A stretch of DNA of 64,000 nt from Flammeovirga sp. SJP92 (GTDB lineage: Bacteria > Bacteroidota > Bacteroidia > Cytophagales > Flammeovirgaceae), in assembly GCF_001583495.1 (NCBI RefSeq), contig NZ_LQAQ01000098.1:62001-126000 (forward strand), written 5' to 3'. The number at the start of each line of letters is the position of its first letter. The stretch's first letter is position 1. Positions 27,346 to 58,258 of the stretch are shown here, piece after piece. The notes below the pieces were generated by a model. The model was not told the origin of the DNA and did no database searches. It worked only from the letters and a program-made list of their open reading frames with translations. A program made the translations under genes and the position numbers.

Positions 27346-27409
27346 AGAAATCAGGAGATTTCTGCTGATTTGTAGGACACGAATGATGCTAACGCTTAAC
27401 ATTCGCGCC
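27346..27409 (-). repeat. REP-like hairpins: one B-type and one A-type copy
   Basis: B-type hairpin AGAAATC-AGGA-GATTTCT (27346-27363) and A-type hairpin 27375-27409 (minus-strand loop TTAAGCGTTAGCAT, stem CGAATG/CATTCG plus outer pairs). Same order and orientation as 34057-34119. Confidence 0.75.
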
Positions 27410-27527
27410 AGTGGACTTTCTACTTTTTTAGTTTGGTAGTGTTTCACCGGCCTTGAAGGGAAAAGCGTTAAGAATTTCATGGAGAGAGCCGTTAAAAATG
27501 ATTTTGTTGTTTGAGCTTTAGCGAGTT

Positions 27528-27605
27528 TAAAATCATTTAGGCGAGAGGAATGGAATTTAGCTTTTGACTTCAAAGCCTTGACTTTTTTGCTTCGTTTTTG
27601 TGTTA
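27528..27605. repeat. Dispersed intergenic repeat, copy 2
   Basis: Near-identical over ~50 bases to 15570-15620 (AAAATCATTTAGGCGAGAGG to TTGACTTCAAAGCC). The right end TTGCTTCGTTTTTGTGTTAA reads like similar repeats I know from related genomes. No gene is convincing between 27279 and 27700. Confidence 0.7.
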
Positions 27606-27700
27606 AGACAAAAATGAAGAAGAAGGAAGCTTGAAAGCAACGCATAGAAAACGTGTAGAAATGTCAATTGAAAGTTGACGATAATTTAGTTTACAACGTA

Positions 27701-28567
27701 ATGGATCACCAAAACATCTCTTATCATCAAAATAAAAAAATAGGAAAAGGGTTGCCTTTCGCAATAGTCCCTTCCTCTATCCTTTTGGAAGGAACAGATA
27801 TTTTCTCTCCTTCCAAAAGGGATTTTCATGTATTGTTTTGGTTCAAAAAAGGTTCAGGCACCTACTATATCGATTTTCAGAAATATACTTTTCAACCCAA
27901 TACCTTAATGCTCTTATCTAAAGATCAGATCAGTTATTTTGATGCTTTAGACCCCAAAGAAGTAGAAATTCAAAGCATTGTATTCACTCCAGAGTTTTTG
28001 TATCGCAATGATCATGACTTGCAACATATGTTTCAGTTTTCTTTAGCTTCTCATATTGAAGGAATGCAGTATTTATCCCTGTCGGAAAAAGAAAGCACCT
28101 TTTTTAAAATGCTCAGTGATCAAATGTTTGAGGTATATGATCATTGGGAATTGCCACAGCAAGAACATGCCTTTTACCATTGGCTGAGTTTGTTTTTAAT
28201 TCAAGTGGAAAGAATACAGCAACAGCATCAATCCATAAAAAAAATATCCCCTTCAGATCAATTACACTTGAAGTTTCAACAGTTGCTAGAAGAAAATTTC
28301 AAGAAGGAATACAAAGTAGAATTCTATCTCAATACCTTGAACATAAATATCAAAGCATTGAGTAAAATACTAAAAGAAAAATATGACCTGTCTCCCAAAG
28401 CAGTCATTGACGAACGAAGAGTTTTAGAAATAAAGCGTCTACTGAAAGGAACATCAATCCCCATTAAAGAAATCGCTTATGAAATGGGATTTGATGAACC
28501 AACGAATATGGTGAAGTATTTTAAGAAGAGGACTTCTTTTACGCCCAATTCATTCCGAAAATATTAA
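27701..28567 (+). CDS. AraC family transcriptional regulator
   Basis: About 288 residues from ATG 27701. A TTG start at 27668 is less likely. Residues ~1-180 form a cupin-like sensor (FHVLFWFKKGSGTYYIDFQK, FQPNTLMLLSKDQI). The C-terminal ~100 residues hold two helix-turn-helix units of AraC/XylS type (LNTLNINIKALSKILKEKY; GTSIPIKEIAYEMGFDEPTN, YFKKRTSFTPNSFRKY). It follows the FAD oxidoreductase-glycosidase pair and is a candidate regulator of that pair through a sugar ligand, but a 420-base repeat-rich gap separates them. Confidence 0.9.
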   Translation: MDHQNISYHQNKKIGKGLPFAIVPSSILLEGTDIFSPSKRDFHVLFWFKKGSGTYYIDFQKYTFQPNTLMLLSKDQISYFDALDPKEVEIQSIVFTPEFLYRNDHDLQHMFQFSLASHIEGMQYLSLSEKESTFFKMLSDQMFEVYDHWELPQQEHAFYHWLSLFLIQVERIQQQHQSIKKISPSDQLHLKFQQLLEENFKKEYKVEFYLNTLNINIKALSKILKEKYDLSPKAVIDERRVLEIKRLLKGTSIPIKEIAYEMGFDEPTNMVKYFKKRTSFTPNSFRKY

Positions 28568-28613
28568 AGAAATAGGATGAATTGATAAAACATGTTCTTC
28601 TTTCTTTCACATT

Positions 28614-30269
28614 TTAATCCCTCATCACCAATTCATACTTCTTCTTAATAAACTGACGTGATTGATGTGTGGCCACCTCGTTGTCCAATGCTTTCTGATA
28701 ATACGTTGCAGCTTTTTTACTTTGATGTGCTTTGATGAAATAATCACCTATTATTTCATACACATTGTAGCCTTTAGGATTGAGTGCTATGAACTCATCA
28801 ATAGCTTTCTGTGAAATTGGAGGCAGTTGATCATTCCAGTTTTTGAATTGAAAAGCCATTCCTTTGAACTGTTTATAATTGTGGTAATCATCCCAATGAT
28901 CAGGACCCGCTTCTGAAATTTGTTTTGAACTTGAGGCTAAAGTAGCTGGTGGTGGGTAATTCTGAGAGTTTGAGAATACAGAATCCAGATTATAACAGAT
29001 AAACTCTTCCATACCATGATGGCTTGTAGACAACCACATTTCTCTTGTTTCTGGTTTGAAAATTATAGAATGATGTAAATGGAGAGAGTTAATAGTTTTT
29101 GCATTGCCAAGACCGATAGGTTGATCTTCAAAACCATCCGTATCTCTTAAAACCGTGGCAATATCCTGCACCGTAAATTCATCATTTTGATTGATGAGTT
29201 CTTGTATTCTGATGGCTCTATAATAAGAAGCATAAGAAGGGTCATAGGCCATGGGTTTTCTAAGTTCATCGGTTTGTAGGTGCGAAGTACAAACCAATTC
29301 ATTGTTTCTCATTTGAATGGAATCAATACCATGAGGTGTTTTTTCAATAATGATTGCTGTATTATCAAAAGCTGAAGAAACAAGAATGGATTCATTGACA
29401 TAGGCTTCTTTGGTAAATGCAATATTGAAGGCCTCGTCAACAGTTTGTGCATATTGTAGAATCTCTCTTGAAATTAAAGACATTGGCATAGTGGCAGCCA
29501 ATGGAATTTGTGATTCTGCAGTGTTTATGGTTACTGTTAAGCCTGTTTCGTTCATTCCAGAAACTGCACCAACAAACCCTGCCCAGCTTACGGAGGCAAA
29601 CTTAAATCCTTCATAAGGTTTTACGAAATGTACAATTTTATCTGTACGGTGCTGGTCATGTAAAAAGAAGTCAAAATTTCTTCCCACTAATACATCGTGG
29701 TCCTTGGTTTTAGGTCCGTTGATTGCGAAAGCGGAATTGACCTTGACATCCATTTTTTCAAAAGAATGCTGTGTATCATAAATACCATGATAGTTAAGGA
29801 TTCTTTGGTAAGCTGATCCCATATTATCAAACTTAGGATTCATGTGGAATGATACCCCATACATCTCTTCACAATATTCTGGAAGAATCCGGTTGTCCAT
29901 ATGCCTGTTGTAATAGGCACTCAGAAGTCGGGCTAGATCAGGGTATTTTCCTGGTGCATGTTCCACCATTCTGTAAGCAAAAATAGCTTCTTGTTCTTGT
30001 AAGAAACTTTTGCTTAAGGCACCTGTACTATAACCGATTTCAAAAGGTGTACCTTCTGTATAAAGCTCCCAAATTTTATCTTGTTTTTTGATGATAAAAT
30101 TATTTTTGATCATGTAACGGTTATGGCCTAATGTATCAACTTTTTCATGGATAATTGAAGTGTTGTCAACTTTTGGAGTGGGGATAAATATCCAAGATTG
30201 TATCCATGTGATAGTGATCAGTAACAATAAAAAAAGAGCAAAACTGAGTTTTCTAGCTAAAGAATTCAT
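28614..30269 (-). CDS. C45/AAT-like Ntn-hydrolase family protein with C-terminal TPR
   Basis: 551 residues. N-terminal membrane anchor (residues ~8-28, FALFLLLLITITWIQSWIF). The central part resembles acyl-coenzyme A:6-aminopenicillanic acid acyltransferase/peptidase C45 proteins (DHDVLVGRNFDFFLHDQHRTD, GFVGAVSGMNETGLTVTINTA, LISREILQYAQTVDEAFNIA). Active members process themselves to expose an N-terminal Cys. Here the matching stretch reads VNSAFAINGPKTKD, with no Cys, so it may use Ser or be inactive. The last ~50 residues look like a TPR (YEIIGDYFIKAHQSKKAATYYQKA). Acts outside the inner membrane. Substrate unknown. Confidence 0.75.
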   Translation of the reverse strand: MNSLARKLSFALFLLLLITITWIQSWIFIPTPKVDNTSIIHEKVDTLGHNRYMIKNNFIIKKQDKIWELYTEGTPFEIGYSTGALSKSFLQEQEAIFAYRMVEHAPGKYPDLARLLSAYYNRHMDNRILPEYCEEMYGVSFHMNPKFDNMGSAYQRILNYHGIYDTQHSFEKMDVKVNSAFAINGPKTKDHDVLVGRNFDFFLHDQHRTDKIVHFVKPYEGFKFASVSWAGFVGAVSGMNETGLTVTINTAESQIPLAATMPMSLISREILQYAQTVDEAFNIAFTKEAYVNESILVSSAFDNTAIIIEKTPHGIDSIQMRNNELVCTSHLQTDELRKPMAYDPSYASYYRAIRIQELINQNDEFTVQDIATVLRDTDGFEDQPIGLGNAKTINSLHLHHSIIFKPETREMWLSTSHHGMEEFICYNLDSVFSNSQNYPPPATLASSSKQISEAGPDHWDDYHNYKQFKGMAFQFKNWNDQLPPISQKAIDEFIALNPKGYNVYEIIGDYFIKAHQSKKAATYYQKALDNEVATHQSRQFIKKKYELVMRD

Positions 30270-30428
30270 AGTAAGTAATGAGACGGATAAAGCGTTAATG
30301 AGTAATTGAATACCTTTTTGACCTCAAATAATGAGGTGGGAAACATACTCATAAATTCTGTTTTCAATCCTAAAACAAAAATTTCACAAAATAAGTTACA
30401 TAATTTTTTTTTGATCTTTTTTTTCAAA

Positions 30429-30444
30429 TGTGAAGCGCTTCACA
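30429..30444. promoter_or_regulatory. 16-bp palindrome TGTGAAGCGCTTCACA
   Basis: Perfect palindrome with the TGnAAnCGnTTnCA shape of LacI/GalR-family operators, in the 307-base gap between the C45-like gene and the divergent spondin lipoprotein gene. No LacI-type gene is in the window. Confidence 0.5.
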
Positions 30445-30576
30445 CTTTGTGGAAAAAAACAGATGTAAAATTGTAGAAACAAATAACGAAAAGGATACTC
30501 TAAAAAGTTCTTTTCGGCTTCTAAACTAAATTTAGTCGCTCACTCAAAAAACTCTAGAATTTAACCTATCAACAAA

Positions 30577-31839: not shown

Positions 31840-31963
31840 TAATAGTAGTAATAGATAATAATAATAGATTAACATTAGCCCACTATCACGGATAAACCAA
31901 CAGTCTTTAAAACACTGTAGAAAAGCAAGATTCATTGCTAATTGATTGAATAGAGAATACAAT

Positions 31964-31997
31964 AAGCCTTTCGCTTTTAGCGGAAGGCTTTTCTTTT
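31964..31997 (+). terminator. Intrinsic terminator after spondin lipoprotein
   Basis: 12-bp stem AAGCCTTTCGCT / AGCGGAAGGCTT with a TTT loop and a T-rich tail. Confidence 0.85.
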
Positions 31998-32109
31998 AGG
32001 TAAAAGTTGAGATCCTTTCTTTAAAATTTTATGTTTGTGATACATTTTAAGCAGACTTCTGTTTTCTATCAGAAGATTTGAACCAGATTAAACGACACAA
32101 ATAATATAA

Positions 32110-33186: not shown

Positions 33187-33233
33187 TAATCAATGTTTTA
33201 ATATTTCAAAGGATAAAAATTATTTATAATTTG

Positions 33234-33264
33234 TTTGAACAACTATTTCCTGTACATATATTTG
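33234..33264 (+). promoter_or_regulatory. Full Bacteroidota promoter of the YceI gene
   Basis: TTTG (33234-33237), exactly 19 bases, TATATTTG (33257-33264). Both elements match consensus. The start codon is 78 bases downstream of the -7 element. Confidence 0.75.
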
Positions 33265-33342
33265 TATCAACAAAAAAACAGAAAACAAGAGTTGTTTAAA
33301 AAACATACTCATAAAGCATTTAAACTCTTAATTTAAAATATT

Positions 33343-33909
33343 ATGAAAAGCATTACTTTAACACTAGTAGCAGTTTTATTCTCATTAGTTTCATTCGGAC
33401 AAAAAATCTCTGCTGACAACTCAAAAGTAGAGTGGACAGGTCACAAAGTAGTAGGTTCTACACACACAGGTACTGTAGCAGTAAAAGGTGGTGAGTTGAA
33501 AATCAAAAAAGGTGCTTTGAAAGGTGGTGAAATCGAAATCGACTTGACATCATTAAGCTCAACTGATTTAGAGGGTGAGTGGAAGCAAAAGCTTGATGGT
33601 CACTTAAAATCTGGAGATTTCTTTGATGTTGAAAAATATCCTACTGCAAAATTCGTTTTAAAATCAGCTACTAAAGATGGCGATAAGTTAAAACTAACTG
33701 GTGATATGACAATCAAAGGAGTATCTCAAGAAGTAGCTTTTGATGCGTCATTAAAAGAAGAAGGTAAAAAGTATGTTTTAGAAGGAGCAATCGAAATCGA
33801 CAGAACTAAATTCGGTTTAAAATACGGTTCTGATTCTTTCTTTGACAACTTAGGTGACAAAGCGATTTCAAATAACTTTGATATCAACTTCAAAGTAACA
33901 ACGCTTTAA
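33343..33909 (+). CDS. YceI family exported lipid-binding protein
   Basis: 188 residues: signal peptide (cleavage after SFG at residue 19), then the YceI beta-barrel (NSKVEWTGHKVVGSTHTGTV, IDLTSLSSTDLEGEWKQKLDGHLKSGDFFDVEKYPTAKFV, ITIKGVSQEVAFDASL-type block). Family members bind isoprenoid or quinone-like lipids in the periplasm. Full length, with a perfect promoter and a strong terminator, so it is a well expressed single gene. Codon use looks strongly biased (many AAA, GGT), fitting high expression. Confidence 0.93.
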   Translation: MKSITLTLVAVLFSLVSFGQKISADNSKVEWTGHKVVGSTHTGTVAVKGGELKIKKGALKGGEIEIDLTSLSSTDLEGEWKQKLDGHLKSGDFFDVEKYPTAKFVLKSATKDGDKLKLTGDMTIKGVSQEVAFDASLKEEGKKYVLEGAIEIDRTKFGLKYGSDSFFDNLGDKAISNNFDINFKVTTL

Positions 33910-34014: not shown

Positions 34015-34056
34015 ATTTGTAAAAGGCCCGTTCTGATTAACGTACACAATCTTATT

Positions 34057-34205
34057 AGAAATCAGGAGATTTCTAGTGATCATTAGGCACGGATGACGCT
34101 ATCGCTTAACATCCGCACCAGTGGTTCTGATTCTGTCTACCTAGCGCTAATGTTAAGCGACAGCGTCATTTGTGCTTGAAAGATCGTAAGAAGTCTCCGA
34201 CTTCT
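34057..34205. repeat. REPIN-like element: B'-A' ... A-B inverted hairpin pair
   Basis: Four hairpins in mirror order: AGAAATC-AGGA-GATTTCT (34057-34074), A' (34086-34119, stem GGATG/CATCC, loop TTAAGCGATAGCGT on the minus strand), A (34144-34175, stem TAATG/CATTT, loop TTAAGCGACAGCGT), AGAAGTC-TCC-GACTTCT (34189-34205). Also found at 27346, 56401 and 58113. Confidence 0.8.
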
Positions 34206-34262
34206 AGTTTATACACTAAATGTGTTAGTATCAGCTAAAGACTTGAACCAGTTGTAGAATAT

Positions 34263-35795: not shown

Positions 35796-35797
35796 TG

Positions 35798-47275: not shown

Positions 47276-49630
47276 TTACAGATCCCTTAAAATCTCAGAT
47301 GGGTTTGTATTCACAACCTTCCAGCAGATAGACGTAATTGTAATTACAGAAATCAAACAAACTCCTACACCAAGTAGTAACCAATCGATAAATTGAATCT
47401 GTATTCTATTCGGGAAACTGGAAAGCCATTCAACGCTATAATAATGAGCCAAAGGCATAGCGATAAAGAAGGAGATAAATATCCATAGCAAGTAATCTTT
47501 ATTGAATAAGAATAATACTTGTTGCACAGATGCTCCATTCACTCTGCGGATACTGATCTCTTTCGTTCTTTGTAAAACGGAATAACGTGTGATTCCCCAG
47601 AGTCCACTCACCGCGATAAATAAAGTGATTGCACCAAAGAATAAACTAGCTTGATTTTGCCCTTCCGTTTCTTTATAAACACGATGAATACTTTGATCAT
47701 AGAACATTGCATCCGTCAGAAAATAATCAGGGTTATCTTCTAACCATCTGTTCCTTACTTTTTGAGCTAATTCCAATGGGTTTGAGGTAGAGTATTTCAC
47801 ATAGATATAAGAGAACTCCAACATTCTTGTTGTAATGATCATTAAAGGTTCATTGGGCTGAGTTAATCCTCTGATGGCAAGGTTGTCTATAATACCTATT
47901 ACCTTATAATTCGTGTCATTATATTTTACAATTGACCCTACTTGCGTCTCATTGTTTTTCTTAACGAACTCTTTATTCACAATACATTCAGTACTACGGA
48001 GTTTTTGATTAGCATCAAAGTCTTTTCCTTCAGTTAAGTGAATATCGAAGAAAGACATATAATTATCAGCAACATGTAAAGTAGAAACCATATGCCATTT
48101 ATCGGAACCTTCCAATTGAACACTTTCAATACTAATATTACTACCAATACCTATAAACTCACGAGAAGAAGTCACTTCCTTTACTCCCACCATTTTTTTA
48201 ATTTCTTCCTTATAGGTATCTCTTTTTTCAAAACTAGAATAGATAGGGAGAATGAAAATATTTTCATAGCTGAATCCATGATCTGCTTTGAGTAGATGTT
48301 GGTATTGCTGATGAACAATGAACCCGACTGAGAGCAAGATAAACACGGTAGAGAATTGTAATACCAAAAGTATTTTGTCTCCGTATCGATAAGACGAAAA
48401 TAATTGTGTTTGCCCACTTAAACTTTCTGCAAGAGAAAAGGATTTTACACCTCTCAATGATAGATAACTTAATACTAATATGAGTATTGATCCTATGCTT
48501 AGGTAAAAGAATAGTACTTCTAAAGGATAGTCTTTTAGATAAACTACTGAGTTTAATTTTTCATTGATAAAAGAAAGTACAAAGTGAAAAGGCAATAATG
48601 AAAAACCAATAGAAATTAAAATCAAAAGCCCTATTTCAATACAGGTCGAAATAAGAATTTCTTTGTGATGTGCCCCATAGATTTTCATTAAAGATAGCGT
48701 TTGAATTTCCTCATCTTTCTGAGCGGTATAAAGTACCACAAAGTTGACTAGAGATAATATTAAGATGATGACACCAGTAGAAATAATAACCAAGAAGCTT
48801 TCATAAGATCTTAGTTTAGGCATATCATAAAGAAGGTGATGCGAATGGAAATGTATATCTTTTATAGGTTGTAAAGTAACGGACATTCCAACCCCAAAAG
48901 GAGCATACTCTTTTTCAAAAAGGCTATTTATTTTCTCTAGATTATTAGGGATTTCGTCCTTGTTTTTTACGGTGAGATAAAGAAAGAATGGATTTGAGCC
49001 TAACCACTTGTAAAGGTTTTGGTCATTGGCTTTATAGCGTTCCATCGAACATAAAATATCATACTGCAGGCTACTATTACTGGGAAGATTTTTAAATACG
49101 CCCTTAATTTTTCGAGTAGAACCAGGAATCTCAATTTCTTTATTCAAAGGGCTTTCATCTTTAAAGAATGTGTTGGCGAACGATTCAGAAATTAAGACAT
49201 CATCTTGATCATTAAGTGCTGTTTCTTTATCCCCAAGAATCAGTTCTACATCAAAAAAGTCAAGGAAGTGATTTTCAACAGCACTGATACTATACTCTCC
49301 TACTGATTGTTTATTGATCAATATGTCATTTCGATAAGGGACTTCGATAAAAGTATAATCATCCACATTATCAATCTTCTCTTTTATAGTTTGTCCATGA
49401 ATATAGAATGCTCTTGCCATATTTAGGTCTCCATTTGGCGTTGACAACTTGTAGTTTGTTCTATAAATGTCCTTATCATAGAAGTTGTCATAACCGCTTT
49501 CCGAAAGAAAAAATAGAAAAATAAATAAAGCACTGCTTAGACCCAAAGTGAGTCCAAGCAGGTTGATTGTAGTATTTTGATAGTTTTTCAGTAAGTTCTG
49601 AAAAGCTAATTTGAAATAGATTTTATACAT
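47276..49630 (-). CDS. MacB/FtsX-type ABC transporter permease, third of three
   Basis: 784 residues. Layout: N-terminal helix (FKLAFQNLLKNYQNTTINLL), a periplasmic MacB-type domain, three transmembrane helices, a second periplasmic domain, and a final helix cluster ending SEILRDL. The motif RTKEISIRRVNGASVQQVLFLF is the FtsX/MacB cytoplasmic coupling helix. All three permeases start with near-identical sequence (FxxAxxNLxKNYQNTxINLLGLxLGL) and end SEILRDL or SKILRDL, so they arose by tandem duplication. It is the distal gene of the operon, two bases after its neighbour. Exports a peptide or toxic compound with the ATPase and adaptor upstream (inferred). Confidence 0.9.
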   Translation of the reverse strand: MYKIYFKLAFQNLLKNYQNTTINLLGLTLGLSSALFIFLFFLSESGYDNFYDKDIYRTNYKLSTPNGDLNMARAFYIHGQTIKEKIDNVDDYTFIEVPYRNDILINKQSVGEYSISAVENHFLDFFDVELILGDKETALNDQDDVLISESFANTFFKDESPLNKEIEIPGSTRKIKGVFKNLPSNSSLQYDILCSMERYKANDQNLYKWLGSNPFFLYLTVKNKDEIPNNLEKINSLFEKEYAPFGVGMSVTLQPIKDIHFHSHHLLYDMPKLRSYESFLVIISTGVIILILSLVNFVVLYTAQKDEEIQTLSLMKIYGAHHKEILISTCIEIGLLILISIGFSLLPFHFVLSFINEKLNSVVYLKDYPLEVLFFYLSIGSILILVLSYLSLRGVKSFSLAESLSGQTQLFSSYRYGDKILLVLQFSTVFILLSVGFIVHQQYQHLLKADHGFSYENIFILPIYSSFEKRDTYKEEIKKMVGVKEVTSSREFIGIGSNISIESVQLEGSDKWHMVSTLHVADNYMSFFDIHLTEGKDFDANQKLRSTECIVNKEFVKKNNETQVGSIVKYNDTNYKVIGIIDNLAIRGLTQPNEPLMIITTRMLEFSYIYVKYSTSNPLELAQKVRNRWLEDNPDYFLTDAMFYDQSIHRVYKETEGQNQASLFFGAITLFIAVSGLWGITRYSVLQRTKEISIRRVNGASVQQVLFLFNKDYLLWIFISFFIAMPLAHYYSVEWLSSFPNRIQIQFIDWLLLGVGVCLISVITITSICWKVVNTNPSEILRDL

Positions 49631-49632
49631 AC

Positions 49633-52017
49633 TTATAAGTCTCTTAAAATCTTAGATGGATTGATGTTAATTACTTTCCAACAAATCATAGTAATAGTGG
49701 AAATGGACATCAATAGAATTCCAAATGCAAGTGTGCCCCATATCCCAAAATTAATTTCAATTCTATTTGGGAAATTCATTAACCAAAGGGAGCAGAAATG
49801 ATGCGATATGGGTAGTGAAATAATAAAAGCAAGAAGGATCCATTGTAAATAATCTTTATTGAATAGCATCAGGATATCTAGTCTTGAAGCACCATTTACT
49901 TTCCTGATACTCATCTCCTGTTTTCTTTGAAGAACAGAAAAACGAGTAATTCCCCAAAGCCCACTAATGGCAATGAGTAGGGAAATTATTCCGAAAAAAC
50001 TACCTGCTTTTTGTTGTCCTTGTACGGCAGTATAGTTTCGTTGAAGTTCAAGATCATAAAACAAAATTTCAGAGTGTGTTTCAGGAAAAGATTGATCCCA
50101 TATGTTTTTCACTTTGTCAATTATTTCAATTGGATTTTGAGAATTGTACTTGATATTCAAAAAGTTTCTATCCCAACCATTTTCAGCATTAGTAGCTAAT
50201 AAAATAGGTCCTGTTTCTTCAATCAAACCATTAATAGATAATGATTGAATAATACCCACTACTTCAAGTTTTTCATCACCTAGTTCTACTATACTACCAA
50301 TTCCTTCCCATCCATCAAACCTTTTAAAATCATCGTTGACAATACATTGCTTTTTTGCTTTGTGATTATTTTCGTCAAAAGTATTACCCTCTTTGAGTTT
50401 GATATCCAAGAAGTCCAAATAGTTGTCATCAGCATGTAAAATATAGGCTAATTCATCTTTCTCTGACTCACCCACTTTTACCATAATTAAACTCGAACCA
50501 TTTTTCCCTTTTCCTTTCCCAATCATTTCATTAGAAAGCATGATATCTTCTACTCCAGTGATCTTATTGATATCCTCTTTCAGTAGTTCTAACTTTTGAT
50601 GAGGTATCTGTTTCTTAGTATTCAGTTTTAAAACCAATGTATTATTATAATCAAATCCATAATCTGATATCAATAGATACTGATATTGTTGGTAGATGGT
50701 AACACCAATTGAAACAATAGAAAAAACTATTAAAAACTGGATAAGAAGTAACCCTTTCTCAGTTTTATTTTTAGATGAAAAAAGTTGTGTTTGACCGCTT
50801 AAACTCTTGGCGAGTGAAACAGTGTTTACCCTTCTCAATGAAAGAAAGCTAAGTAGTATACTCAATGTGGCTCCTATGATTAAATAAAAGAAAACAATTG
50901 AATAAATATAGTCACCAATGTGAACCACTGCATTTAATTGTTCATTGAGAAAAGGGAGTATGAAATAAAGAAAAATGAAAGAAACACCTGTAGCTACCAT
51001 GATCATCAAACTTACTTCCAAGCAAGTAGATTTTATGATATCATTTTGATGAGCACCAAAAATTTTCATTAAAGTTAAAGAGGTAATTTCATTGTCTTTC
51101 TGAACACTGTAAAGGACTATAAAATTAAAAAGTGCTAGCGAAAGAATAATGATACCTACTGTAATAACAATCAGGAAACTCTCATAAGAACGGGTATTGA
51201 CAAAATCATGACTCAAGTCTTTTGAATTAAAATGAATAGCACTGATATGTTGCAGTGATGCTTCATTTGTAATTCTAAAAGGGGAGAATTTCTCCACTAA
51301 TAAATCGTTGATTTTTTCTAATGTAGAAGGAATTTCATGATCATGTTTGAACTTCAAATAGAGGTTGAAAATATTGGCTCCTTCCCATAAGTCAAAAGTA
51401 TTATATCTTGGTCGAAGATATTCGACAGAATAAATAATATCATATTGTATATGACTGTTGGAAGGCAAATCTTTAAAAACTCCATTGATGATAAATGTAT
51501 CATTTTTAAACTCTACCCTTTTCCCTATTGGATTCTCTTTTTGAAAATACTTTTTCGAAAATGATTCAGAAATGAGAATATCATCTTTATTCTTCAATAC
51601 CTTTTTTTTGTCTCCTTTTACTAATGGAATATCAAAAAAATGGAGATAATTATTTTCAGCTGCAATTGCCTTTACACCTTCAATACTTTCTTTCTGAAGA
51701 GAAAGGTATGGAATTAAATGTTGATGGTAGACCGTTGCATGGTCCACAACATTATCAATACGCTCTTGATAAGCAGTTCCATGAGGAAATGAACAGAGTG
51801 GCATTGAAAGTGCATTTCCTCCAGATACAGACATTTTATAATTCATTCTATAGATGTCATCCTTGTAGAAACTATCAAAGCTGCTTTCTGATAAATAAAA
51901 AAGAAAAACAAACAATGTACTCGCCAGCCCAAGACTCAATCCCAAAAGATTGATCATCGTATTCTGATAATTTTTGATCAGATTTCTAATCGCTAGAGAA
52001 AGGTATATTTTATACAT
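49633..52017 (-). CDS. MacB/FtsX-type ABC transporter permease, second of three
   Basis: 794 residues with the same architecture as its two neighbours: LSLAIRNLIKNYQNTMINLL at the start, RKQEMSIRKVNGASRLDILMLF near the C-terminus, ending SKILRDL. About 40-50% identity to the other two by eye, so the copies are old rather than recent. Starts two bases after the first permease and needs the same ATPase. A homodimer or a mixed dimer of permeases is possible; the three copies suggest different partners or cargo. Confidence 0.9.
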   Translation of the reverse strand: MYKIYLSLAIRNLIKNYQNTMINLLGLSLGLASTLFVFLFYLSESSFDSFYKDDIYRMNYKMSVSGGNALSMPLCSFPHGTAYQERIDNVVDHATVYHQHLIPYLSLQKESIEGVKAIAAENNYLHFFDIPLVKGDKKKVLKNKDDILISESFSKKYFQKENPIGKRVEFKNDTFIINGVFKDLPSNSHIQYDIIYSVEYLRPRYNTFDLWEGANIFNLYLKFKHDHEIPSTLEKINDLLVEKFSPFRITNEASLQHISAIHFNSKDLSHDFVNTRSYESFLIVITVGIIILSLALFNFIVLYSVQKDNEITSLTLMKIFGAHQNDIIKSTCLEVSLMIMVATGVSFIFLYFILPFLNEQLNAVVHIGDYIYSIVFFYLIIGATLSILLSFLSLRRVNTVSLAKSLSGQTQLFSSKNKTEKGLLLIQFLIVFSIVSIGVTIYQQYQYLLISDYGFDYNNTLVLKLNTKKQIPHQKLELLKEDINKITGVEDIMLSNEMIGKGKGKNGSSLIMVKVGESEKDELAYILHADDNYLDFLDIKLKEGNTFDENNHKAKKQCIVNDDFKRFDGWEGIGSIVELGDEKLEVVGIIQSLSINGLIEETGPILLATNAENGWDRNFLNIKYNSQNPIEIIDKVKNIWDQSFPETHSEILFYDLELQRNYTAVQGQQKAGSFFGIISLLIAISGLWGITRFSVLQRKQEMSIRKVNGASRLDILMLFNKDYLQWILLAFIISLPISHHFCSLWLMNFPNRIEINFGIWGTLAFGILLMSISTITMICWKVININPSKILRDL

Positions 52018-52019
52018 CG

Positions 52020-54377
52020 CTACAGATCTCTTAATATTTCAGATGGATTCATATTCACAATCTTCCAGCAGATCATTGTAATAGTGATGATGGATATGAT
52101 AGCTACGACTACGCCCATCATTACCCATGAAATATATTCAATACCGATGCGATCTGGGAATGCAGACAGCCAATCATTGCCAAAATAATTGGCTATAGGC
52201 ATTGCAAGAAGGAACGATAGTGATATCCATTGTAAATAATCTCTATTGAATAATTTTAGAATATCTAACCTTGAGGCTCCATTGACTCTTCGGATACTCA
52301 TTTCTTTGGTACGTTTTAATACCGAAAATCTAGTGATTCCCCATAGTCCAGAAATAGCAATCAATATGGCTATACATCCAAAGAAGAAACTCGCTTGTTG
52401 CTGACTTTTGATGTAATTGTAGTTGTATGCGATTTCATCATTATAGAAGGTGATAAATGCACGAACATCAGGATAGTCTTTTTGGAATTCATCCAAGACT
52501 TCATTCGCTAATTGATAAGGGTTTTTAGAAGAAGTTTTAATGTTGATATAATCAAAATTCCATCCATCAATCCTCGCTGAGGTACCAATAATCAATGGGC
52601 CACTTTGGTAAGCCAATGAATTAAAACTGATAGATGGTATTACGCCTACGACTTCATAATCTCTATCACCTCGATGTACTATTGTACCCAAACCGTTCCA
52701 TCCCTCTAACTTTTTAAAGGCTTCATTGACCAATATTTGACGGTCACTAATAGTTTTATTGGTGTGAAGATTCTCCCCTTCTAACAGAGGAATATCAAAG
52801 CATTCTAAAAAGTCATTACTGACATATAAAGCATTAATGATTTCTGATCTTTCACTTTCACCAATTGAATATCCATTTTTGGTCAACCCAACACCGATCA
52901 TTTGAGAAGACATACTGACCGTTTCGATGCCAGGTTTCTTAAGAATCTTTTCTTTGAAACTCTGTTGTGCTTCTAAAGGCATTACTGTAGAAAGGTCAAG
53001 CGTAAATACATTTTGATGTTGGAAACCAAGATCTTTATGAATAAGATGATAATGTTGTTGGTAAACCGTGATTCCAACACATGATAAAACAAAGACGGTA
53101 GAAAATTGAAAAACCAATAACGCTTTTTCACTCCATCCTTTTGAAGCATAAATACTCGTCTGTCCATTCAAGCTTTTTGATAAAGAAGACCTCTTGATAC
53201 CTCTCAAAGAAAGACTGCTTAAGACCATGGTCAATACAACTCCGATGATGGCATAAAACCCTAAAATATATGGAATATAATTGCTTAAAAATACCCTTGT
53301 GACTAACTGATCATTTAAGAAAGGTAATGCTATATTTAATGTGAAAATCGAAATAAGAGTTGCTATACCTACCATCAGAAAGACCTCCATGCAAGTTGAA
53401 ATCCATAAATCACGATGATGGGCACCGTAGATTTTCATAAGCGTAAGCGAGTGGATTTCTTCATCTTTTTGGGCAGTATACAATACCACGAAATTCAATA
53501 ATGCTAACGATAGAATAATACATCCGGCGGCAATGATAATCCATAAACTTTCATTACTTCTTGGGTTGCCGGTATCGTAACTGAGACCTTTATTAAGGTG
53601 AATGGATTCTATAGTCTGAAGTGATGCCTCAACAGAAAAATCATCATTGGGATATACTTCATCCAATATCTTATTCATAGCAGTAATAGTTGCCTCTTTT
53701 TGGTCTTCATGAAGTAATTTGATGTAGACATTAAAGTTCCAACCTCCATTCCATCCCAGATAAGCACCATTTTGTTCAGAGACCCATTTCTCAGGGAATA
53801 AAACATCAAATTGTAAATGAGAATTGACGGGTCTATCGGGAATAATACCTTCTATAAACAACTTCGTTCCATACAATTCTATTTCCTGACCAATAGGGTC
53901 AGCCTTGCCAAATATTTTCTCTGCCATCGATGCTGTAATTACTGCACTGTTGTTGGCTTGAAGTACTTTTTCTGCATCACCTCTTAGGAGTTCAATTCCG
54001 AAGAAAGAAAAATAATTAGCACTACCTACCGACATTCTTATATCAGCATAACGTTGATTATGAATATAAATAGGCGATGGATTAGGGTTGCTGATCAAGA
54101 ACATCTCATTGATGTTTTCAATTTTTTCCAAAAAGGTACCACCCTCCGGATAAAACGCTTGTGCGGTATGATCAACATCTCCGTAAATAAACCTTTTATG
54201 TGTAATTCTGTAAATGTCGTCTTTATAGAAATTATCAAAATTCGTTTCCAGATGAAAGAACAAAAAGATAAACAGAGCACTTGCCAACCCAAGACTCAAT
54301 CCCAGCAGATTAATAAGGGTATTTTGGTAGTTCTTGATCAGGTTTCTAACCGCTAAATTAAAATAAATCTTATACAT
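52020..54377 (-). CDS. MacB/FtsX-type ABC transporter permease, first of three
   Basis: 785 residues. The first permease after the ATPase gene (16-base gap). Starts FNLAVRNLIKNYQNTLINLL, has the coupling helix RTKEMSIRRVNGASRLDILKLF and ends SEILRDL. Four membrane segments flank two MacB-like periplasmic domains of ~220 and ~180 residues. The family pulls substrate from the periplasm and passes it to TolC (mechanotransmission in MacB). Confidence 0.9.
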   Translation of the reverse strand: MYKIYFNLAVRNLIKNYQNTLINLLGLSLGLASALFIFLFFHLETNFDNFYKDDIYRITHKRFIYGDVDHTAQAFYPEGGTFLEKIENINEMFLISNPNPSPIYIHNQRYADIRMSVGSANYFSFFGIELLRGDAEKVLQANNSAVITASMAEKIFGKADPIGQEIELYGTKLFIEGIIPDRPVNSHLQFDVLFPEKWVSEQNGAYLGWNGGWNFNVYIKLLHEDQKEATITAMNKILDEVYPNDDFSVEASLQTIESIHLNKGLSYDTGNPRSNESLWIIIAAGCIILSLALLNFVVLYTAQKDEEIHSLTLMKIYGAHHRDLWISTCMEVFLMVGIATLISIFTLNIALPFLNDQLVTRVFLSNYIPYILGFYAIIGVVLTMVLSSLSLRGIKRSSLSKSLNGQTSIYASKGWSEKALLVFQFSTVFVLSCVGITVYQQHYHLIHKDLGFQHQNVFTLDLSTVMPLEAQQSFKEKILKKPGIETVSMSSQMIGVGLTKNGYSIGESERSEIINALYVSNDFLECFDIPLLEGENLHTNKTISDRQILVNEAFKKLEGWNGLGTIVHRGDRDYEVVGVIPSISFNSLAYQSGPLIIGTSARIDGWNFDYINIKTSSKNPYQLANEVLDEFQKDYPDVRAFITFYNDEIAYNYNYIKSQQQASFFFGCIAILIAISGLWGITRFSVLKRTKEMSIRRVNGASRLDILKLFNRDYLQWISLSFLLAMPIANYFGNDWLSAFPDRIGIEYISWVMMGVVVAIISIITITMICWKIVNMNPSEILRDL

Positions 54378-54393
54378 GGTTATTTAGCTTTAG

Positions 54394-55083
54394 TTAGAAC
54401 AACTCAATATCATTTTCTACCTCCGTAACGATTTCACCATCCAACAATGAAATCACTCTATGTGCATAATTTGCGTCTCTTTGGGAGTGCGTTACCATTA
54501 CAATTGTCGCTCCTTGTTTGTTGAGTTCCGTGAGTAATTCCATCACTTCTTTACCGTTTTTAGAATCCAAATTACCTGTTGGTTCATCGGCTAAAATCAG
54601 TTTAGGATTGGAAACTACCGCTCTGCAGATACCCACACGTTGTTGTTGACCACCCGAAAGCTGTTGCGGATAATGCCCTCTTCTATGGCTGATTTTCAAA
54701 CGGTCCAATACTTCCTCAATTCTCTTTTTTCGCTCGCTTTTACTCATCTCCAAATACGCTAATGGCAGGGCAATATTTTCAGCAACGGTAAGCTGATTGA
54801 TCAAGTGGAAGTTTTGAAATACGAACCCAATATTTCCTTTTCGAAGGTTGGTTCTTTGTGACTCTTTGAAGTTGGCTACTTCTTCTCCATCCAGCTTATA
54901 ATTACCAGAAGACGGACTTTCCAATAAGCCAATAACATTTAGAAGAGTAGATTTACCGCATCCCGAAGGACCCATGATAGCAATAAATTCTCCTTCTTGA
55001 ACTTCAAGATTGATATTATTTAAAGCTTGAGTTTGTACCTCTTCCGTTTCGAAGTACTTGTTGATATTTTCTAATTTGATCAT
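54394..55083 (-). CDS. MacB/LolD-type ABC transporter ATPase
   Basis: 229 residues. Cytoplasmic motor of the efflux pump. Walker A GPSGCGKST, Q-loop FVFQNFHLIN, signature LSGGQQQRVGICRAV, Walker B LILADEPTGNLDS, then the H-loop VTHSQRD. Full length for this family. Stands between the adaptor gene (34-base gap) and the permeases. One ATPase serves three permeases, so it is shared. Confidence 0.95.
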   Translation of the reverse strand: MIKLENINKYFETEEVQTQALNNINLEVQEGEFIAIMGPSGCGKSTLLNVIGLLESPSSGNYKLDGEEVANFKESQRTNLRKGNIGFVFQNFHLINQLTVAENIALPLAYLEMSKSERKKRIEEVLDRLKISHRRGHYPQQLSGGQQQRVGICRAVVSNPKLILADEPTGNLDSKNGKEVMELLTELNKQGATIVMVTHSQRDANYAHRVISLLDGEIVTEVENDIELF

Positions 55084-55116
55084 TGTATAAGATTTATAAT
55101 TTGAATTTATATTTTT

Positions 55117-56403
55117 TTACTCAAAAACTATCTGATCATAATCACCTAGTAAGTTATACTGAGAGATGACCACTTTTTCGCCAGCTTTCAGACCGTCGAG
55201 TATTTCGTATTTTTGAATGTTTTGATCGCCGATTTTGATCTTTCTTTTTTGTGCGGTTTTACCATCTTCACTCAATACATACACCCATTGACCGGCAGTT
55301 TCAGAATAGAAATTGCCTTTATTGAGAAGGAGTGATTTCTTAGGATTCCCAAGACTTAATCGAGCATTAGTCGTTTGTCCAGAATGAAGGTTTTCGGGTT
55401 TTTCCTTTTCAAAAATCAATTCTACTTTGAATAGACTTTCCTTTACTTCAGGGTAAATTCTTTGGAGTACCAAATCATAATTTTGATTTTGAAATTGATA
55501 CGAAGCCTTCAATCCTTTTTTGACCTTAGTGATATAGCGTTCATCTATTTCAGCGATCACTTTCACTTCTGATAAGTCATAAAGCACTCCCAGATGTTGT
55601 CCTTGTTGGATGGATTGTCCGATTTCTGCTTCAATATTTCCTAAGTAAGCCGATGATGGAGCCTTGATTTCAAGATGTTCCAATCTACTCTGCACCAATT
55701 CCAAAGTTGCTCTCATTTTCACAAGATCTTCTTCTAAAGTCTGCATAGTTGTTTCCTGTAAAAGCTTGTCATTTTCAGCTTTCATTTTATTGATCTTGAG
55801 CATTTCCTTTTGAAAAAGATAGTCCTCTTTGGCTTTGATATATTCTTCTTCAGCCACTAATCCTTTTTCCAGAAGACGTTCTTGTTGCTTATAGTTTCTT
55901 TCCGTTCGCTTCAGTTGATATTCACTTTCCACTAGATTTTTCTGCGATTGAATCAGGTCGTTTCTAAAATTGATTTTCGTATTTCTGAGGTAATTTTCCT
56001 TTTCAGCCAATGCTACCTCACTATTCAAAATCTGTTGGTAAAGTTCATTATTTTCTAACGCAATAATGATATCTCCCTCATTGATAAAACTTCCCTCTTG
56101 AGCTACAATTTCCTTTACTCTCCCTCTTTCTACAGCATCCAAATAAATGGTTTGATGCGGTTGAATTTTCCCTTTGATATTGATATAATCATGAAATAAT
56201 CCATTCGTTACTTCAGCGATTTGAAGCTTATTTTTTGAAATACTGATTTCAGAAGGAGCATTAAATGCACTGATTCCATAAAGGATAATAGTAAGGATAA
56301 AAATACCTGTTGAAATGTATCCTATGTATTTATGAAAGGTCGATTTCTTCTTTTTTATAATAGTGTCCATGTGTGCCTTTTTAATGTTTAGATACTGGTT
56401 CAA
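55117..56403 (-). CDS. HlyD/MacA-type periplasmic adaptor of efflux pump
   Basis: 428 residues. N-terminal membrane anchor (residues ~27-47), a barrel-sandwich part (IKGKIQPHQTIYLDAVERGRVKEIVAQEGSFINEGDII), a long coiled-coil hairpin (~115-235, many Leu, Lys, Glu), then beta-barrel parts (APSSAYLGNIEAEIGQSIQQGQ). It bridges the inner-membrane permease and TolC. Second gene of the operon after TolC. A hairpin-rich repeat lies between them, so the spacing to TolC is 173 bases. Confidence 0.9.
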   Translation of the reverse strand: MNQYLNIKKAHMDTIIKKKKSTFHKYIGYISTGIFILTIILYGISAFNAPSEISISKNKLQIAEVTNGLFHDYINIKGKIQPHQTIYLDAVERGRVKEIVAQEGSFINEGDIIIALENNELYQQILNSEVALAEKENYLRNTKINFRNDLIQSQKNLVESEYQLKRTERNYKQQERLLEKGLVAEEEYIKAKEDYLFQKEMLKINKMKAENDKLLQETTMQTLEEDLVKMRATLELVQSRLEHLEIKAPSSAYLGNIEAEIGQSIQQGQHLGVLYDLSEVKVIAEIDERYITKVKKGLKASYQFQNQNYDLVLQRIYPEVKESLFKVELIFEKEKPENLHSGQTTNARLSLGNPKKSLLLNKGNFYSETAGQWVYVLSEDGKTAQKRKIKIGDQNIQKYEILDGLKAGEKVVISQYNLLGDYDQIVFE

Positions 56404-56563
56404 GTCTTAAGCGATAGCGAGACTTGGACCTATTTTTTGTAAAAAGTCTGTAGACTTTTAAGTGATATTGGTATGGATCTATAAGTCTTCAGACTTACCT
56501 AGCGCAAGAGTTAAGCGATAGCGTCTCTTGTGCTTTGAAGATCTTTAGAAGTCTCTGACTTCT
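56401..56563 (+). repeat. REP-like element cluster between tolC-type and adaptor genes
   Basis: A1 CAAGTC-loop-GACTTG (56401-56426, loop TTAAGCGATAGCGA), B AAAAGTC-TGTA-GACTTTT (56442-56459), B TAAGTC-TTCA-GACTTA (56482-56497), A2 GCGCAAGAG-loop-CTCTTGTGC (56502-56533, loop TTAAGCGATAGCGT, full 9-bp stem), B AGAAGTC-TCT-GACTTCT (56547-56563). A1 begins within the last bases of the adaptor reading frame's 5' side. Confidence 0.8.
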
Positions 56564-56576
56564 AGTAAAACTGTCT

Positions 56577-57905
56577 TTAAATCCAGAATTGATTGCCTTG
56601 ATAAAACATCAATAGCTTTTCTTTCAATAAATAGTTTAATTCAGAAAGCAGAAGATCGACTTCAGCCTGCCCCAATTTTTGTTTTACAGTAAGTAAAGTG
56701 ACAATGTCGATCAGGCCTTCTTCATATTTTTGAAGTGCTATTTCATACGCCATATCATTGGCTTCGATCACTTTCTTTCCTTGCTCTATTTCCTTTTGAA
56801 ATGCCTTCCATTCTCTGTAATCATTCCCAACAGTTCTTCTCAATTCTTGCTGTTGTTGTTTTAATAAAGCATCTGATTCAGCGACTTGAATTTTCGCTCT
56901 TTGTACCGCTAAACGTTGTGTATTTTGATGAAAAATGGGAATGTATAAACGTACACCTACGGTCTGATTCATGTTGTTTTGCCATTGACTTCTAAAAGGA
57001 ATCACTTTACCACTTTCATCGATATTGGTTTCAAAATATCCGGTATTAATAGAAGCATATAAACCAAGTTCGGGAAGGTAACTTGCTTTCTCACTTTTAA
57101 GGTTTTGATGACTACTTTGAAGCGTAAGAAAATGTGTTTTTAGTAATGCTGAATGATTAAAGAAAGTGGTGTAGATGGATTCCTCCGTTCCAAAATCTTT
57201 AGTGAAAATAGAAGGCTGTTCGAATTGAAGTGACAAAGTATTTAATGGAGCATTGTAGTTCATGATATTGACCAATCTAGCTTTTGCCTCCATCATTTTA
57301 TTCTGAGCTTGTAAAGACAATAATCTTTCTTTTTCCAATTGAGCTCTCATTTCAGCCACATCAGCAGAAGCTTTTAAACCCAATTCTTGTTGAGAAACCG
57401 CTCTGTCCACAATTTTCTCAGATAGTTCAATTTGAGCTTTTGTGATTTCTAATAATTCATGGTTATACTCTACATCATAAAAAGCTTGAACTACTTCAAA
57501 CACCAATTGCTCCTTTGTATTCTGCATTTGGTATTGAGACGCCTGATGCTGGTATTCTTCAAACTTCAATTGATACTTCTTTTTGAATCCTTGAAACAAT
57601 GTCCAGTTCAAACTCAAGTCAGAAGTATTATTAAAAAACTGATGATCGATATAAGCATTCGTGCGAGGATCAATTGATCGACCTGCATTGAAAGTACCAT
57701 TAATACTACCACCAATCGAAGGAGCATATTGCCATTTCGCTTGCTTTACACCTAATGAAGCTTGATTGACTTTTAAGACTTCTTGATAGATCGACAAGTT
57801 ATTTTCAATAGCGTATTGAATACATTCTTTGAGCGTCAATGAATCATTTGCCTTTACAGATAAAGGGATAATTAGGAGGAGATATATGTAGATCAATTTT
57901 TTCAT
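56577..57905 (-). CDS. TolC-type outer-membrane efflux protein
   Basis: 442 residues. Signal peptide (cleavage after VKA at residue ~19), then the TolC helical-barrel repeats (LTLKECIQYAIENNLSIYQEVLKV, second unit LLALQSSHQNLKSEKASYLPELGLYASI-like at ~260-285), ending FYQGNQFWI. It forms the outer-membrane channel of the pump. First gene of the operon; its upstream block (57922-57987) is shared with the receptor gene at 60776. Confidence 0.92.
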   Translation of the reverse strand: MKKLIYIYLLLIIPLSVKANDSLTLKECIQYAIENNLSIYQEVLKVNQASLGVKQAKWQYAPSIGGSINGTFNAGRSIDPRTNAYIDHQFFNNTSDLSLNWTLFQGFKKKYQLKFEEYQHQASQYQMQNTKEQLVFEVVQAFYDVEYNHELLEITKAQIELSEKIVDRAVSQQELGLKASADVAEMRAQLEKERLLSLQAQNKMMEAKARLVNIMNYNAPLNTLSLQFEQPSIFTKDFGTEESIYTTFFNHSALLKTHFLTLQSSHQNLKSEKASYLPELGLYASINTGYFETNIDESGKVIPFRSQWQNNMNQTVGVRLYIPIFHQNTQRLAVQRAKIQVAESDALLKQQQQELRRTVGNDYREWKAFQKEIEQGKKVIEANDMAYEIALQKYEEGLIDIVTLLTVKQKLGQAEVDLLLSELNYLLKEKLLMFYQGNQFWI

Positions 57906-57921
57906 GCTAATTGTCTTTTGT

Positions 57922-57987
57922 TGTATGCCAATTAGTATCGAAAAAACAGACTAAAGTGGTTAAGTTATTGATAATTAGTGTTTTGTG
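57922..57987 (-). promoter_or_regulatory. Shared upstream block of the efflux operon
   Basis: Plus-strand text GTATGCCAA (57923), then GTTAAGTT at exactly 36 bases from the block start, TTGATA and TTTTGT. The same boxes with the same spacing lie at 60795-60860, before the receptor gene, each about 18-19 bases from its start codon. Confidence 0.6.
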
Positions 57988-58112
57988 TTTATTTTTGATA
58001 GTTGGAGTGTAAAATTTTTATACAGGGTGAGGTAAAATAATTTGACAGCTTAATTTAATTTATTGTGGTTCGTTTGGACGTTTTACTAAAATGTTCCTAC
58101 ATCTCCATGTTT

Positions 58113-58258
58113 CAAGTGTTAAGCGCTAGCGTCACTTGGAACTGTTTATTGGCGAAGTCTCCTGACTTCGAGATGAATAAGAGATGTTTTGTGTATCGAA
58201 GTCGGGAGACTTCGCCAAAGTTTAATCACAAGTGACGGCTTTCGCCTTAACACTTGCG
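58113..58258. repeat. REPIN-like element: A-B ... B'-A' hairpins
   Basis: A CAAGTG-loop-CACTTG (58113-58138, loop TTAAGCGCTAGCGT), B CGAAGTC-TCCT-GACTTCG (58153-58170), B' CGAAGTC-GGGA-GACTTCG (58197-58214), A' CACAAGTG-loop-CACTTGCG (58227-58258), whose minus-strand loop TTAAGGCGAAAGCCGT carries an extended inner stem. Mirror arrangement, opposite to 34057-34205. Confidence 0.8.

What the first reader, a model, noticed from the sequence alone, without database searches (positions are those of the whole stretch)
27346..58258. Hairpin family with conserved loop TTAAGCGATAGCGT and covarying stems
At least seven hairpins in four intergenic regions (27375-27409, 34086-34119, 34144-34175, 56401-56426, 56502-56533, 58113-58138, 58227-58258) share a 14-base loop while outer stems change together: GGATG/CATCC, AAGAG/CTCTT, AAGTG/CACTT, AAGTC/GACTT. 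The loop centre pairs GC with GC around GATA, GACA, GCTA or GTTA, and one copy lengthens this to GGC-GAAA-GCC. They are combined with a second hairpin, AAGTC-loop-GACTT, in mirrored B'-A'-A-B and A-B-B'-A' arrays like REPINs. Compensating changes mean that the fold is selected.
Basis: seen in the sequence. Interest (0 to 1): 0.78.

Follow-up and report, generated by a model that had tools for sequence, protein, structure and literature searches.

The report
Twin-hairpin REP repeats with RAYT transposases
The seven hairpins belong to a large family of small mobile DNA repeats in a marine Bacteroidota genome; each repeat is a pair of hairpins kept folded by compensating mutations, and most likely it is copied around by its own single-strand-DNA-cutting transposase.

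Summary
All ten outer stem pairs change on both sides and 99.1% of cells pair. The "14-base loop" is best read as a TTAA/GT internal loop capped by a GC-GNNA-GC mini-hairpin; in 106 of 146 such caps the third base is T or C, against the RNA GNRA rule but fitting the DNA rule GN(N)A. A second hairpin follows, and units pair mostly as fixed heterodimers: A/B divergent, C/D and H/I convergent.

The elements frame RAYT genes. Four related RAYTs in this Flammeovirga genome, one decayed, each carry their own element type. Across Bacteroidota, RAYT divergence follows stem divergence, and twin hairpins flank 55 of 87 non-redundant RAYT loci against 0-3 in shuffles. The proteins fit TnpAREP subclass 2.6 (RAYT group 5), whose repeats the literature calls "atypical".

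Verdict: REP/REPIN-like elements dispersed by group-5 RAYTs, a GTAG-less twin-hairpin variant of a known kind. Mobility is inferred from presence/absence between species; cleavage is untested.

The parts
27346..27363 (-). second hairpin H2 of family A (AGAAATC-TCCT-GATTTCT on the minus strand)
   Evidence: read in sequence; folds as a hairpin
27372..27413 (-). H1 hairpin, family A, solo copy
   Evidence: R1 57.6 bits
27420..27439 (-). CTACC...GTAG arm pair of the solo-A element, upstream of H1 on the minus strand
   Evidence: solo-A flank consensus and sequence
34057..34074 (-). H2 hairpin of the family A half of the A/B pair
   Evidence: sequence; fold
34082..34123 (-). H1 hairpin, family A
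   Evidence: R1 60.7 bits
34139..34180 (+). H1 hairpin, family B
   Evidence: R1 57.2 bits
34189..34205 (+). H2 hairpin, family B (AGAAGTC-TCC-GACTTCT)
   Evidence: sequence; fold
34055..34206 (.). whole A/B divergent unit, the repeated stretch seen genome-wide
   Evidence: DNA matches mostly run from about query 1056 to 1207 of window:33000-35400
56393..56434 (+). H1 hairpin, family G
   Evidence: R1 56.4 bits
56442..56459 (+). H2 hairpin, family G (AAAAGTC-TGTA-GACTTTT)
   Evidence: sequence
56483..56496 (.). AAGTC-TTCA-GACTT hairpin, possibly the H2' remnant of the other G half
   Evidence: sequence; the assignment is inferred
56497..56538 (+). H1 hairpin, family B
   Evidence: R1 57.8 bits
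56547..56563 (+). H2 hairpin, family B
   Evidence: sequence
58105..58146 (+). H1 hairpin, family C
   Evidence: R1 59.5 bits
58153..58170 (+). H2 hairpin, family C (CGAAGTC-TCCT-GACTTCG)
   Evidence: sequence; fold
58197..58214 (-). H2 hairpin, family D
   Evidence: sequence; fold
58221..58264 (-). H1 hairpin, family D, apical GGC-GAAA-GCC
   Evidence: R1 48.2 bits; fold
58105..58262 (.). whole C/D convergent unit (about 158 nt), the repeated stretch seen genome-wide
   Evidence: DNA matches mostly run from about query 2106 to 2263 of window:56000-58900

Best explanation
These are REP/REPIN-like repeats of a twin-hairpin type. One unit is hairpin H1 (10-bp stem, usually a G.T wobble at the same place, TTAA/GT internal loop, GC-GN(N)A-GC cap) followed after a linker of about 6-16 nt by hairpin H2. 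Two unlike units (A+B, C+D, H+I) often form a REPIN-like element. Where a RAYT gene is present it carries its own element type; it is a HUH single-strand nuclease that fits TnpAREP subclass 2.6 / RAYT group 5. Likely mechanism: when a strand becomes single-stranded, at the lagging strand for instance, H1 and H2 fold; the cognate RAYT reads stem, internal loop and cap, cleaves beside the hairpin and joins the ends, so that units spread into intergenic DNA. Shown: fold conservation, twin architecture, heterotypic pairing, RAYT-element association and co-divergence, intergenic placement, presence/absence between species. Inferred: binding, cleavage, the strand used, the role of H2 and of the cap.
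For: Covariation. Intergenic: 203 of 204 copies outside ORFs of at least 150 aa, which cover 77% of that DNA; about 154 expected inside at random. RAYTs: four related genes in the genome, all matching NF047646 REP_Tyr_transpos, flanked by A and B, by D, by E and by G elements. R1 matches at 100 RAYT loci: 97 within 150 nt of the gene, 27 at 150-300, 10 at 300-450, 1-6 per 150-nt bin beyond, none inside. Orientation in the 41 loci left after 95% dedupe: nearest upstream + in 25 of 34, nearest downstream - in 31 of 37. Co-divergence of RAYT and stem: r=0.45 (n=37) and 0.43 (n=34), 0 of 9999 permutations each; stems on the two sides of one gene differ at 2.7 of 20 positions against 7.3 between genes (30 loci). 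Model-free: similar repeats on both flanks in 56 of 87 loci; twin hairpins in 55 of 87 against 0-3 in ten shuffled sets. Pairing: 18 C/D convergent and 11 A/B divergent among 53 neighbour pairs. Presence/absence: site 56383-56577 is empty in G004 and G001 and holds an A/B element in G003 and G005; the C/D element at 58.1 kb is missing in G003. Cap third base T or C in 106 of 146, fitting the DNA GNA/GNNA mini-hairpin rule (PMC4686876, passages).
Against: No cleavage or transposition shown. 31 of 87 RAYT loci gave no significant flank similarity; of the 56 that did, the inverted match was better in 34 but the direct one in 22. 32 of 87 loci have no twin hairpin. Only 20 of 30 deduped loci with elements on both sides have the +/- arrangement. 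Empty sites could be deletions: G004 is the closest match at the 56.4-kb site yet lacks the element. Families H and I have no RAYT found in the genome; the C61 RAYT is flanked by D units only. 8 of 53 neighbour pairs are like-with-like and one A/B pair is convergent. The far control (800-1100 nt away) still shows twin hairpins in 10 of 81 loci, perhaps dispersed copies. Related loci are not independent in the permutation tests. Outside Flammeovirga the cap is found in only part of the loci: 26 of 55 twin loci, some Flammeovirga included; 17 of 33 apices by a naive fold.
Confidence: 0.82

Rival explanations
1. The hairpins act as RNA: transcription terminators or mRNA 3'-end stabilisers, and compensating changes keep the RNA fold.
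For: Strong stems; intergenic placement; 39 of 185 copies lie between convergent genes.
Against: No enrichment between convergent genes: 39 of 185 copies against 45 of 252 gaps. Cap third base is T or C in 106 of 146, contrary to the RNA GNRA preference (recalled). Copies occur on both strands in mirrored pairs. No Rfam family reaches its gathering score in the window. RAYT genes sit among the elements.
Confidence: 0.08
2. They are ends or internally deleted (MITE) forms of true IS200/IS605-like transposons that move as a block with the RAYT gene inside, rather than domesticated REPtrons.
For: RAYT lies between convergent elements at many loci (20 of 30 with both sides); C/D and H/I pairs look like such an element with the gene deleted; the two halves differ as IS left and right ends do (recalled).
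Against: Y1_Tnp matches are few (7, two with internal stops) while hairpins exceed 200; the other three RAYTs are 50-61% identical to the first, so no recent amplification of the gene; for the one member printed in full, NF047646 is over its cut-off and the IS200 model far below its own.
Confidence: 0.2
3. Passive repeats: the association with RAYT is historical and the copies spread by recombination or slippage only, with the fold kept by replication or cruciform effects.
For: Some RAYTs are decayed (in-frame TAG in the C93:567 kb copy; a fragment in C99) while elements persist; G002 has elements but no RAYT match at E<=1e-15.
Against: Match of stem and RAYT, and stems agreeing across one gene but not between genes; full-length RAYT frames without stops in this genome and in 6 of 8 congeners.
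Confidence: 0.1

Closest known systems
TnpAREP subclass 2.6 / RAYT group 5 REPtrons (Quentin et al. 2018, PMC6006769; one section and passages read, supplements not available)
   Same: Mostly Bacteroidetes; about 179 aa; NH[LIV]H, WQ and YIH[QN]NP motifs; genes flanked by structures that lack GT[AG]G and have copies elsewhere in the genome.
   Different: The parts read say only 'atypical', weaker secondary structures found by manual inspection; twin hairpins, the GN(N)A cap, the wobble, heterotypic pairs and the subfamily match are not described there. They may be in its supplementary table, which could not be read.
REPINs / BIMEs of Pseudomonas and E. coli (PMC3116915, listing only; PMC8266576 and PMC6006769, passages)
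   Same: Inverted pairs of short imperfect palindromes, intergenic, tied to a RAYT; heterotypic pairs (E. coli y-z1, y-z2).
   Different: Canonical REPs carry GTAG at the 5' foot and one hairpin per unit; here GT[AG]G stands at the H1 5' foot in 0 of 200 copies and units have two hairpins.
GTAG- and CGTC-tagged REP families (Di Nocera et al. 2013, PMC3733652, passages)
   Same: Families, opposite-orientation dimers, heterodimers.
   Different: Neither tag is a general feature here; these families are not described in the passages read.
IS200/IS605 transposon ends (IS608, ISDra2; passages of PMC8266576, and recalled)
   Same: Hairpins with an irregularity in the stem, HUH/Y1 enzyme.
   Different: Units are dispersed without the gene; the proteins match the RAYT model over its cut-off, not the IS200 one (one member printed).
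d(GCGAAGC)-type DNA mini-hairpins (PMC4686876, passages)
   Same: GNA or GNNA loop closed by at least two G-C pairs.
   Different: There a short stable oligonucleotide; here a natural cap on a repeat.

Membership tests
REP-associated tyrosine transposase (RAYT) | Protein over the NCBIfam REP_Tyr_transpos cut-off | tested here: met
   Member 1: 111.1 bits against 80; 4 of 4 match the model at E<=0.001. Scores of the other three against the cut-off were not printed.
RAYT group 5 / TnpAREP subclass 2.6 | NH[LIV]H, WQ and YIH[QN]NP motifs, about 179 aa, Bacteroidetes | tested here: met
   The four Flammeovirga proteins have NH[LIV]H, FWQ and YIH[DQN]NP; two of the four have D in place of Q/N. 87 non-redundant loci, decayed ones included: NH[LIV]H 64, WQ 68, YIH.NP 62, YIH[QN]NP 44, median 179 aa. 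No tree with reference subclass members was built.
RAYT group 5 / TnpAREP subclass 2.6 | Genes flanked by atypical (non-GTAG) secondary structures with copies elsewhere | tested here: met
   (copies elsewhere tested in this genome).
REP (canonical, GTAG) | GT[AG]G at the 5' foot of the hairpin | tested here: not met
   0 of 200 on the H1 strand; on the other strand 27 of 200, of which 25 of 89 family-A copies; 0 and 2 of 104 RAYT-flanking H1s, the two being one locus held twice.
REPIN | Two REPs in inverted orientation at short fixed spacing | tested here: met
   18 C/D convergent (17 at 105-121 nt, one at 223), 11 A/B divergent (44-57 nt). But 100 of 204 copies are not in pairs, and family A is mostly solo (69 of 89).
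REPIN | Mobilised by the cognate RAYT | not testable with these tools
   Only presence/absence between species and co-divergence.
IS200/IS605 insertion sequence | Whole element including tnpA is multi-copy in the genome | tested here: not met
   Few, divergent gene copies against more than 200 hairpins.
Structured RNA family in Rfam | Match at gathering score | tested here: not met
   0 matches in the window.

The most novel reading that the evidence does not exclude
Group-5 RAYTs use a recognition code of their own: a two-hairpin single-stranded DNA substrate in which the second hairpin takes over the part that GTAG plays in canonical REPs, and the extra-stable GN(N)A mini-hairpin cap marks single-stranded DNA. 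Unlike halves (A/B, C/D) act as left and right ends, and several such orthogonal codes coexist in one genome.
Probability: 0.3. Interest if true: 0.68.

Novelty: new variant of a known kind. Interest (0 to 1): 0.52.

Why it matters
In the paper that defined them, the repeats of the Bacteroidetes RAYT group were set apart as 'atypical' because they lack GTAG (PMC6006769, parts read). Here they get a definite anatomy that can be searched for, and one genome offers four RAYTs, one of them decayed, each with its own element type: a natural specificity-swap experiment. If the second hairpin replaces GTAG, it would show a second way for a domesticated transposase to recognise its repeat, and bear on how REP families keep apart inside one genome.

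Tried and rejected
A role at mRNA 3' ends was tested by gene context and not supported. Rfam gave nothing in the window. GT[AG]G was sought on both strands and rejected as a general feature, though 25 of 89 family-A copies have it on the strand opposite to H1. Similarity between the inner arms of H1 and H2 of one unit is only slightly above permuted pairs (2.40 against 2.06 of 5, 28 of 9999) and may reflect clade composition, so it is not used. The regular-expression classification leaves 12 of 204 copies unassigned and files six copies with stem GGCGCAAGTG under D that look like H; so the five D/I pairs and one H/I pair are read here as about six H/I pairs, by inference. In one search the naive fold of the caps competes with other pairings: 17 of 33 score as G..A, against a shuffled mean of 1.9 and maximum of 10. 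Papers: PMC6006769 one section and passages; PMC3733652, PMC8266576, PMC4686876 and PMC12306157 passages; others only in search listings. The listings show no paper on twin-hairpin repeats in Bacteroidota by title or start of abstract; the supplementary table of PMC6006769 with the subclass 2.6 structures was not readable, so prior description there cannot be excluded. Bertels et al. 2017 was not among the listings.
Full report
What is there. The window lies in contig C98 of an 8.49-Mb, 123-contig genome. The A/B-associated RAYT of this genome is 99% identical to one of Flammeovirga aprica, so the host is taken to be a Flammeovirga species (Bacteroidota). The seven reported hairpins are real. 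A covariance model built from 40 rows (39 distinct) finds exactly those seven in the window with filters off. The core pattern occurs 100 times in the genome against 3 for the reversed control, and a second form with a 3-bp cap stem 47 times against 0. In the window and 95 fetched stretches (705 kb) the model finds 204 copies at E<=0.01. The whole-genome scan scores only 150 candidates, and pattern hits outside the fetched stretches exist, so the true number is higher.

Anatomy. H1 has a 10-bp outer stem. All ten pairs show double changes among 39 copies, 99.1% of cells pair, and no shuffle of 500 reaches the covariation score. Among the 200 copies long enough to read, the fourth pair from the foot is a G.T or T.G wobble in 176, and the base just 5' of the stem is T in 199. 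The 'loop' is best read as TTAA on one side and GT on the other around a mini-hairpin. Among 146 four-base caps G is first in 140 and A last in 144, while the two middle bases vary; 16 further caps have three bases, all ending in A and 13 starting with G; 42 of 204 did not parse (38 off-pattern, 4 too short). The search pattern behind the model fixed the first G but not the last A. The third base is T or C in 106 of 146, which the RNA GNRA rule would not favour (recalled), while GNA and GNNA loops on at least two G-C pairs are the known rule for extra-stable DNA mini-hairpins (PMC4686876, passages). H2 follows H1 after a short linker, for example AGAAATC-TCCT-GATTTCT in family A and CGAAGTC-TCCT-GACTTCG in C and D. 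Six window pieces were folded as single-stranded DNA: the H1 outer stem forms in all six, H2 in the five that contain it whole, z -2.3 to -5.0; but in two of the six the minimum-energy cap is GCG/CGT around NNAG rather than GC/GC around GNNA. The 3-bp caps (GCC/GGC, GGC/GCC) cannot form that alternative, which is why GNNA is preferred here.

Subfamilies and pairs. Stems and H2 define about nine families, A to I. Of 53 neighbouring pairs within 260 nt, 18 are C/D convergent and 11 A/B divergent, about six are H/I convergent, one A/B is convergent, and 8 are like-with-like; 104 of 204 copies are in pairs, and 69 of 89 A copies are solo. The solo A element has its own flanks with a CTACC...GGTAG arm pair. 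The repeated stretch for A/B is about 152 nt and for C/D about 158 nt, most matches ending there.

Placement and turnover. 203 of 204 copies lie outside ORFs of at least 150 aa although these cover 77% of the DNA; 200 random placements gave a mean of 154 inside. Of 185 copies with a neighbour on both sides, 131 lie between tandem, 39 between convergent and 15 between divergent genes; the 252 gaps of at least 100 nt in the same DNA are 164, 45 and 43. Orthologous sites in other Flammeovirga differ: the 56.4-kb site is empty in G004 and G001 and holds an A/B element in G003 and G005, where this genome has G plus B; the C/D element at 58.1 kb is missing in G003, which has an A/B element there.

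The transposase. The genome has seven Y1_Tnp matches. Four belong together, the other three 50-61% identical to the first, and all match REP_Tyr_transpos; the only solved relative found by sequence is 4er8, TnpArep, E 1.1e-4. Each is flanked by its own type: A and B at C93:113 kb, D at C61:66 kb, E at C62:50 kb, G at C93:567 kb. The G one has an in-frame TAG near its start, and a C-terminal fragment in C99 lies beside an F element. Families H and I have no RAYT found.

Across Bacteroidota. Relatives and named genomes gave 110 RAYT loci: 30 loci and the best 80 of 474 confirmed. In the 100 scanned with the model, some held twice, the 155 matches crowd at the gene ends: 97 within 150 nt and 27 at 150-300, none inside. 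Of 54 loci with a near match, 41 remain after removing proteins at least 95% identical; the nearest upstream element points toward the gene in 25 of 34 and the nearest downstream in 31 of 37; 20 of 30 loci with both have the converging arrangement. Stem and RAYT distances correlate (r 0.45 and 0.43, 0 of 9999 permutations), and stems on the two sides of one gene agree. Without the model, 56 of 87 non-redundant loci have similar repeats on the two flanks above the 99th percentile of mismatched pairs, the inverted match being better in 34 and the direct in 22, and 55 of 87 have a twin hairpin in the flanks against 0-3 in ten shuffled sets; 10 of 81 have one 800-1100 nt away. The cap is accessory: GC-GN(N)A-GC is present in 26 of these 55, and Fulvivirga imtechensis has the same GCGCAAG stem with a three-base loop instead. 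In 43 RAYT loci listed by hand, 415 of 430 outer-stem cells pair, every pair has at least two Watson-Crick types, and re-dealt arms reach 75.3% at most.

What it is. The proteins fit TnpAREP subclass 2.6, equal to RAYT group 5, which is mostly in Bacteroidetes and whose flanking structures lack GT[AG]G and were found by hand (PMC6006769, one section and passages). GT[AG]G stands at the H1 foot in 0 of 200 copies; on the other strand in 27 of 200, 25 of them family A. So these are REP/REPIN-like elements of a GTAG-less, twin-hairpin variety: not canonical REPs by the GTAG test, but alike in intergenic spread, inverted pairing and tie to a RAYT.

How it most likely works. By analogy with E. coli TnpAREP, which cleaves single-stranded REP at CT beside the hairpin and needs an irregular stem (PMC8266576, passages), the cognate RAYT would bind the folded strand, cleave near the foot and rejoin. 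The steady T at the foot, mostly after C or A, is compatible with such a site but proves nothing. The role of H2, the cap and the unlike halves is inference.

Weak points. Copies within families are related, so pair counts are not independent events; permutation tests share that weakness. Mobility is not shown. The supplementary table with the subclass 2.6 structures could not be read, so part of the anatomy may be drawn there.

Noticed in passing
L290 (G000:C46:6000-9500), about 1450-2270: A different RAYT-like gene (166 aa) in the same genome is flanked by GTAGGGGCAGACC...GTCTGCCC repeats, which looks like a canonical GTAG REP system beside the twin-hairpin ones.
   Followed up: partly
L287 (G000:C123:19500-28500): Six E/F-type hairpins, all on one strand and 0.3-2.3 kb apart, in a cluster of small genes, with a longer shared downstream flank.
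   Followed up: partly
window 27449-27481; also L018 and the downstream flank of L192 (Fulvivirga): A stretch like GGCCTTGAAGGGAAAAGCGTTAAGAATTTCATG recurs beside family-A copies and, in similar form, in another genus; nature unknown.
   Followed up: no
L036/L174 (G000:C93:567 kb) and G000:C99:202280-202459: Decayed RAYT genes: one with an in-frame TAG near the start, one a C-terminal fragment, both still beside elements.
   Followed up: partly
contigs C5, C44, C73, C92, C113, C117, C121 of G000: Elements lie within about 600 bases of these contig ends, so the repeats may break the assembly and copies be undercounted.
   Followed up: no
window 47276-54377 and 58422-60776 (-): Four ORFs of 784-794 aa, three of them end to end and one beside the C/D element; possible paralogues.
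   Followed up: no
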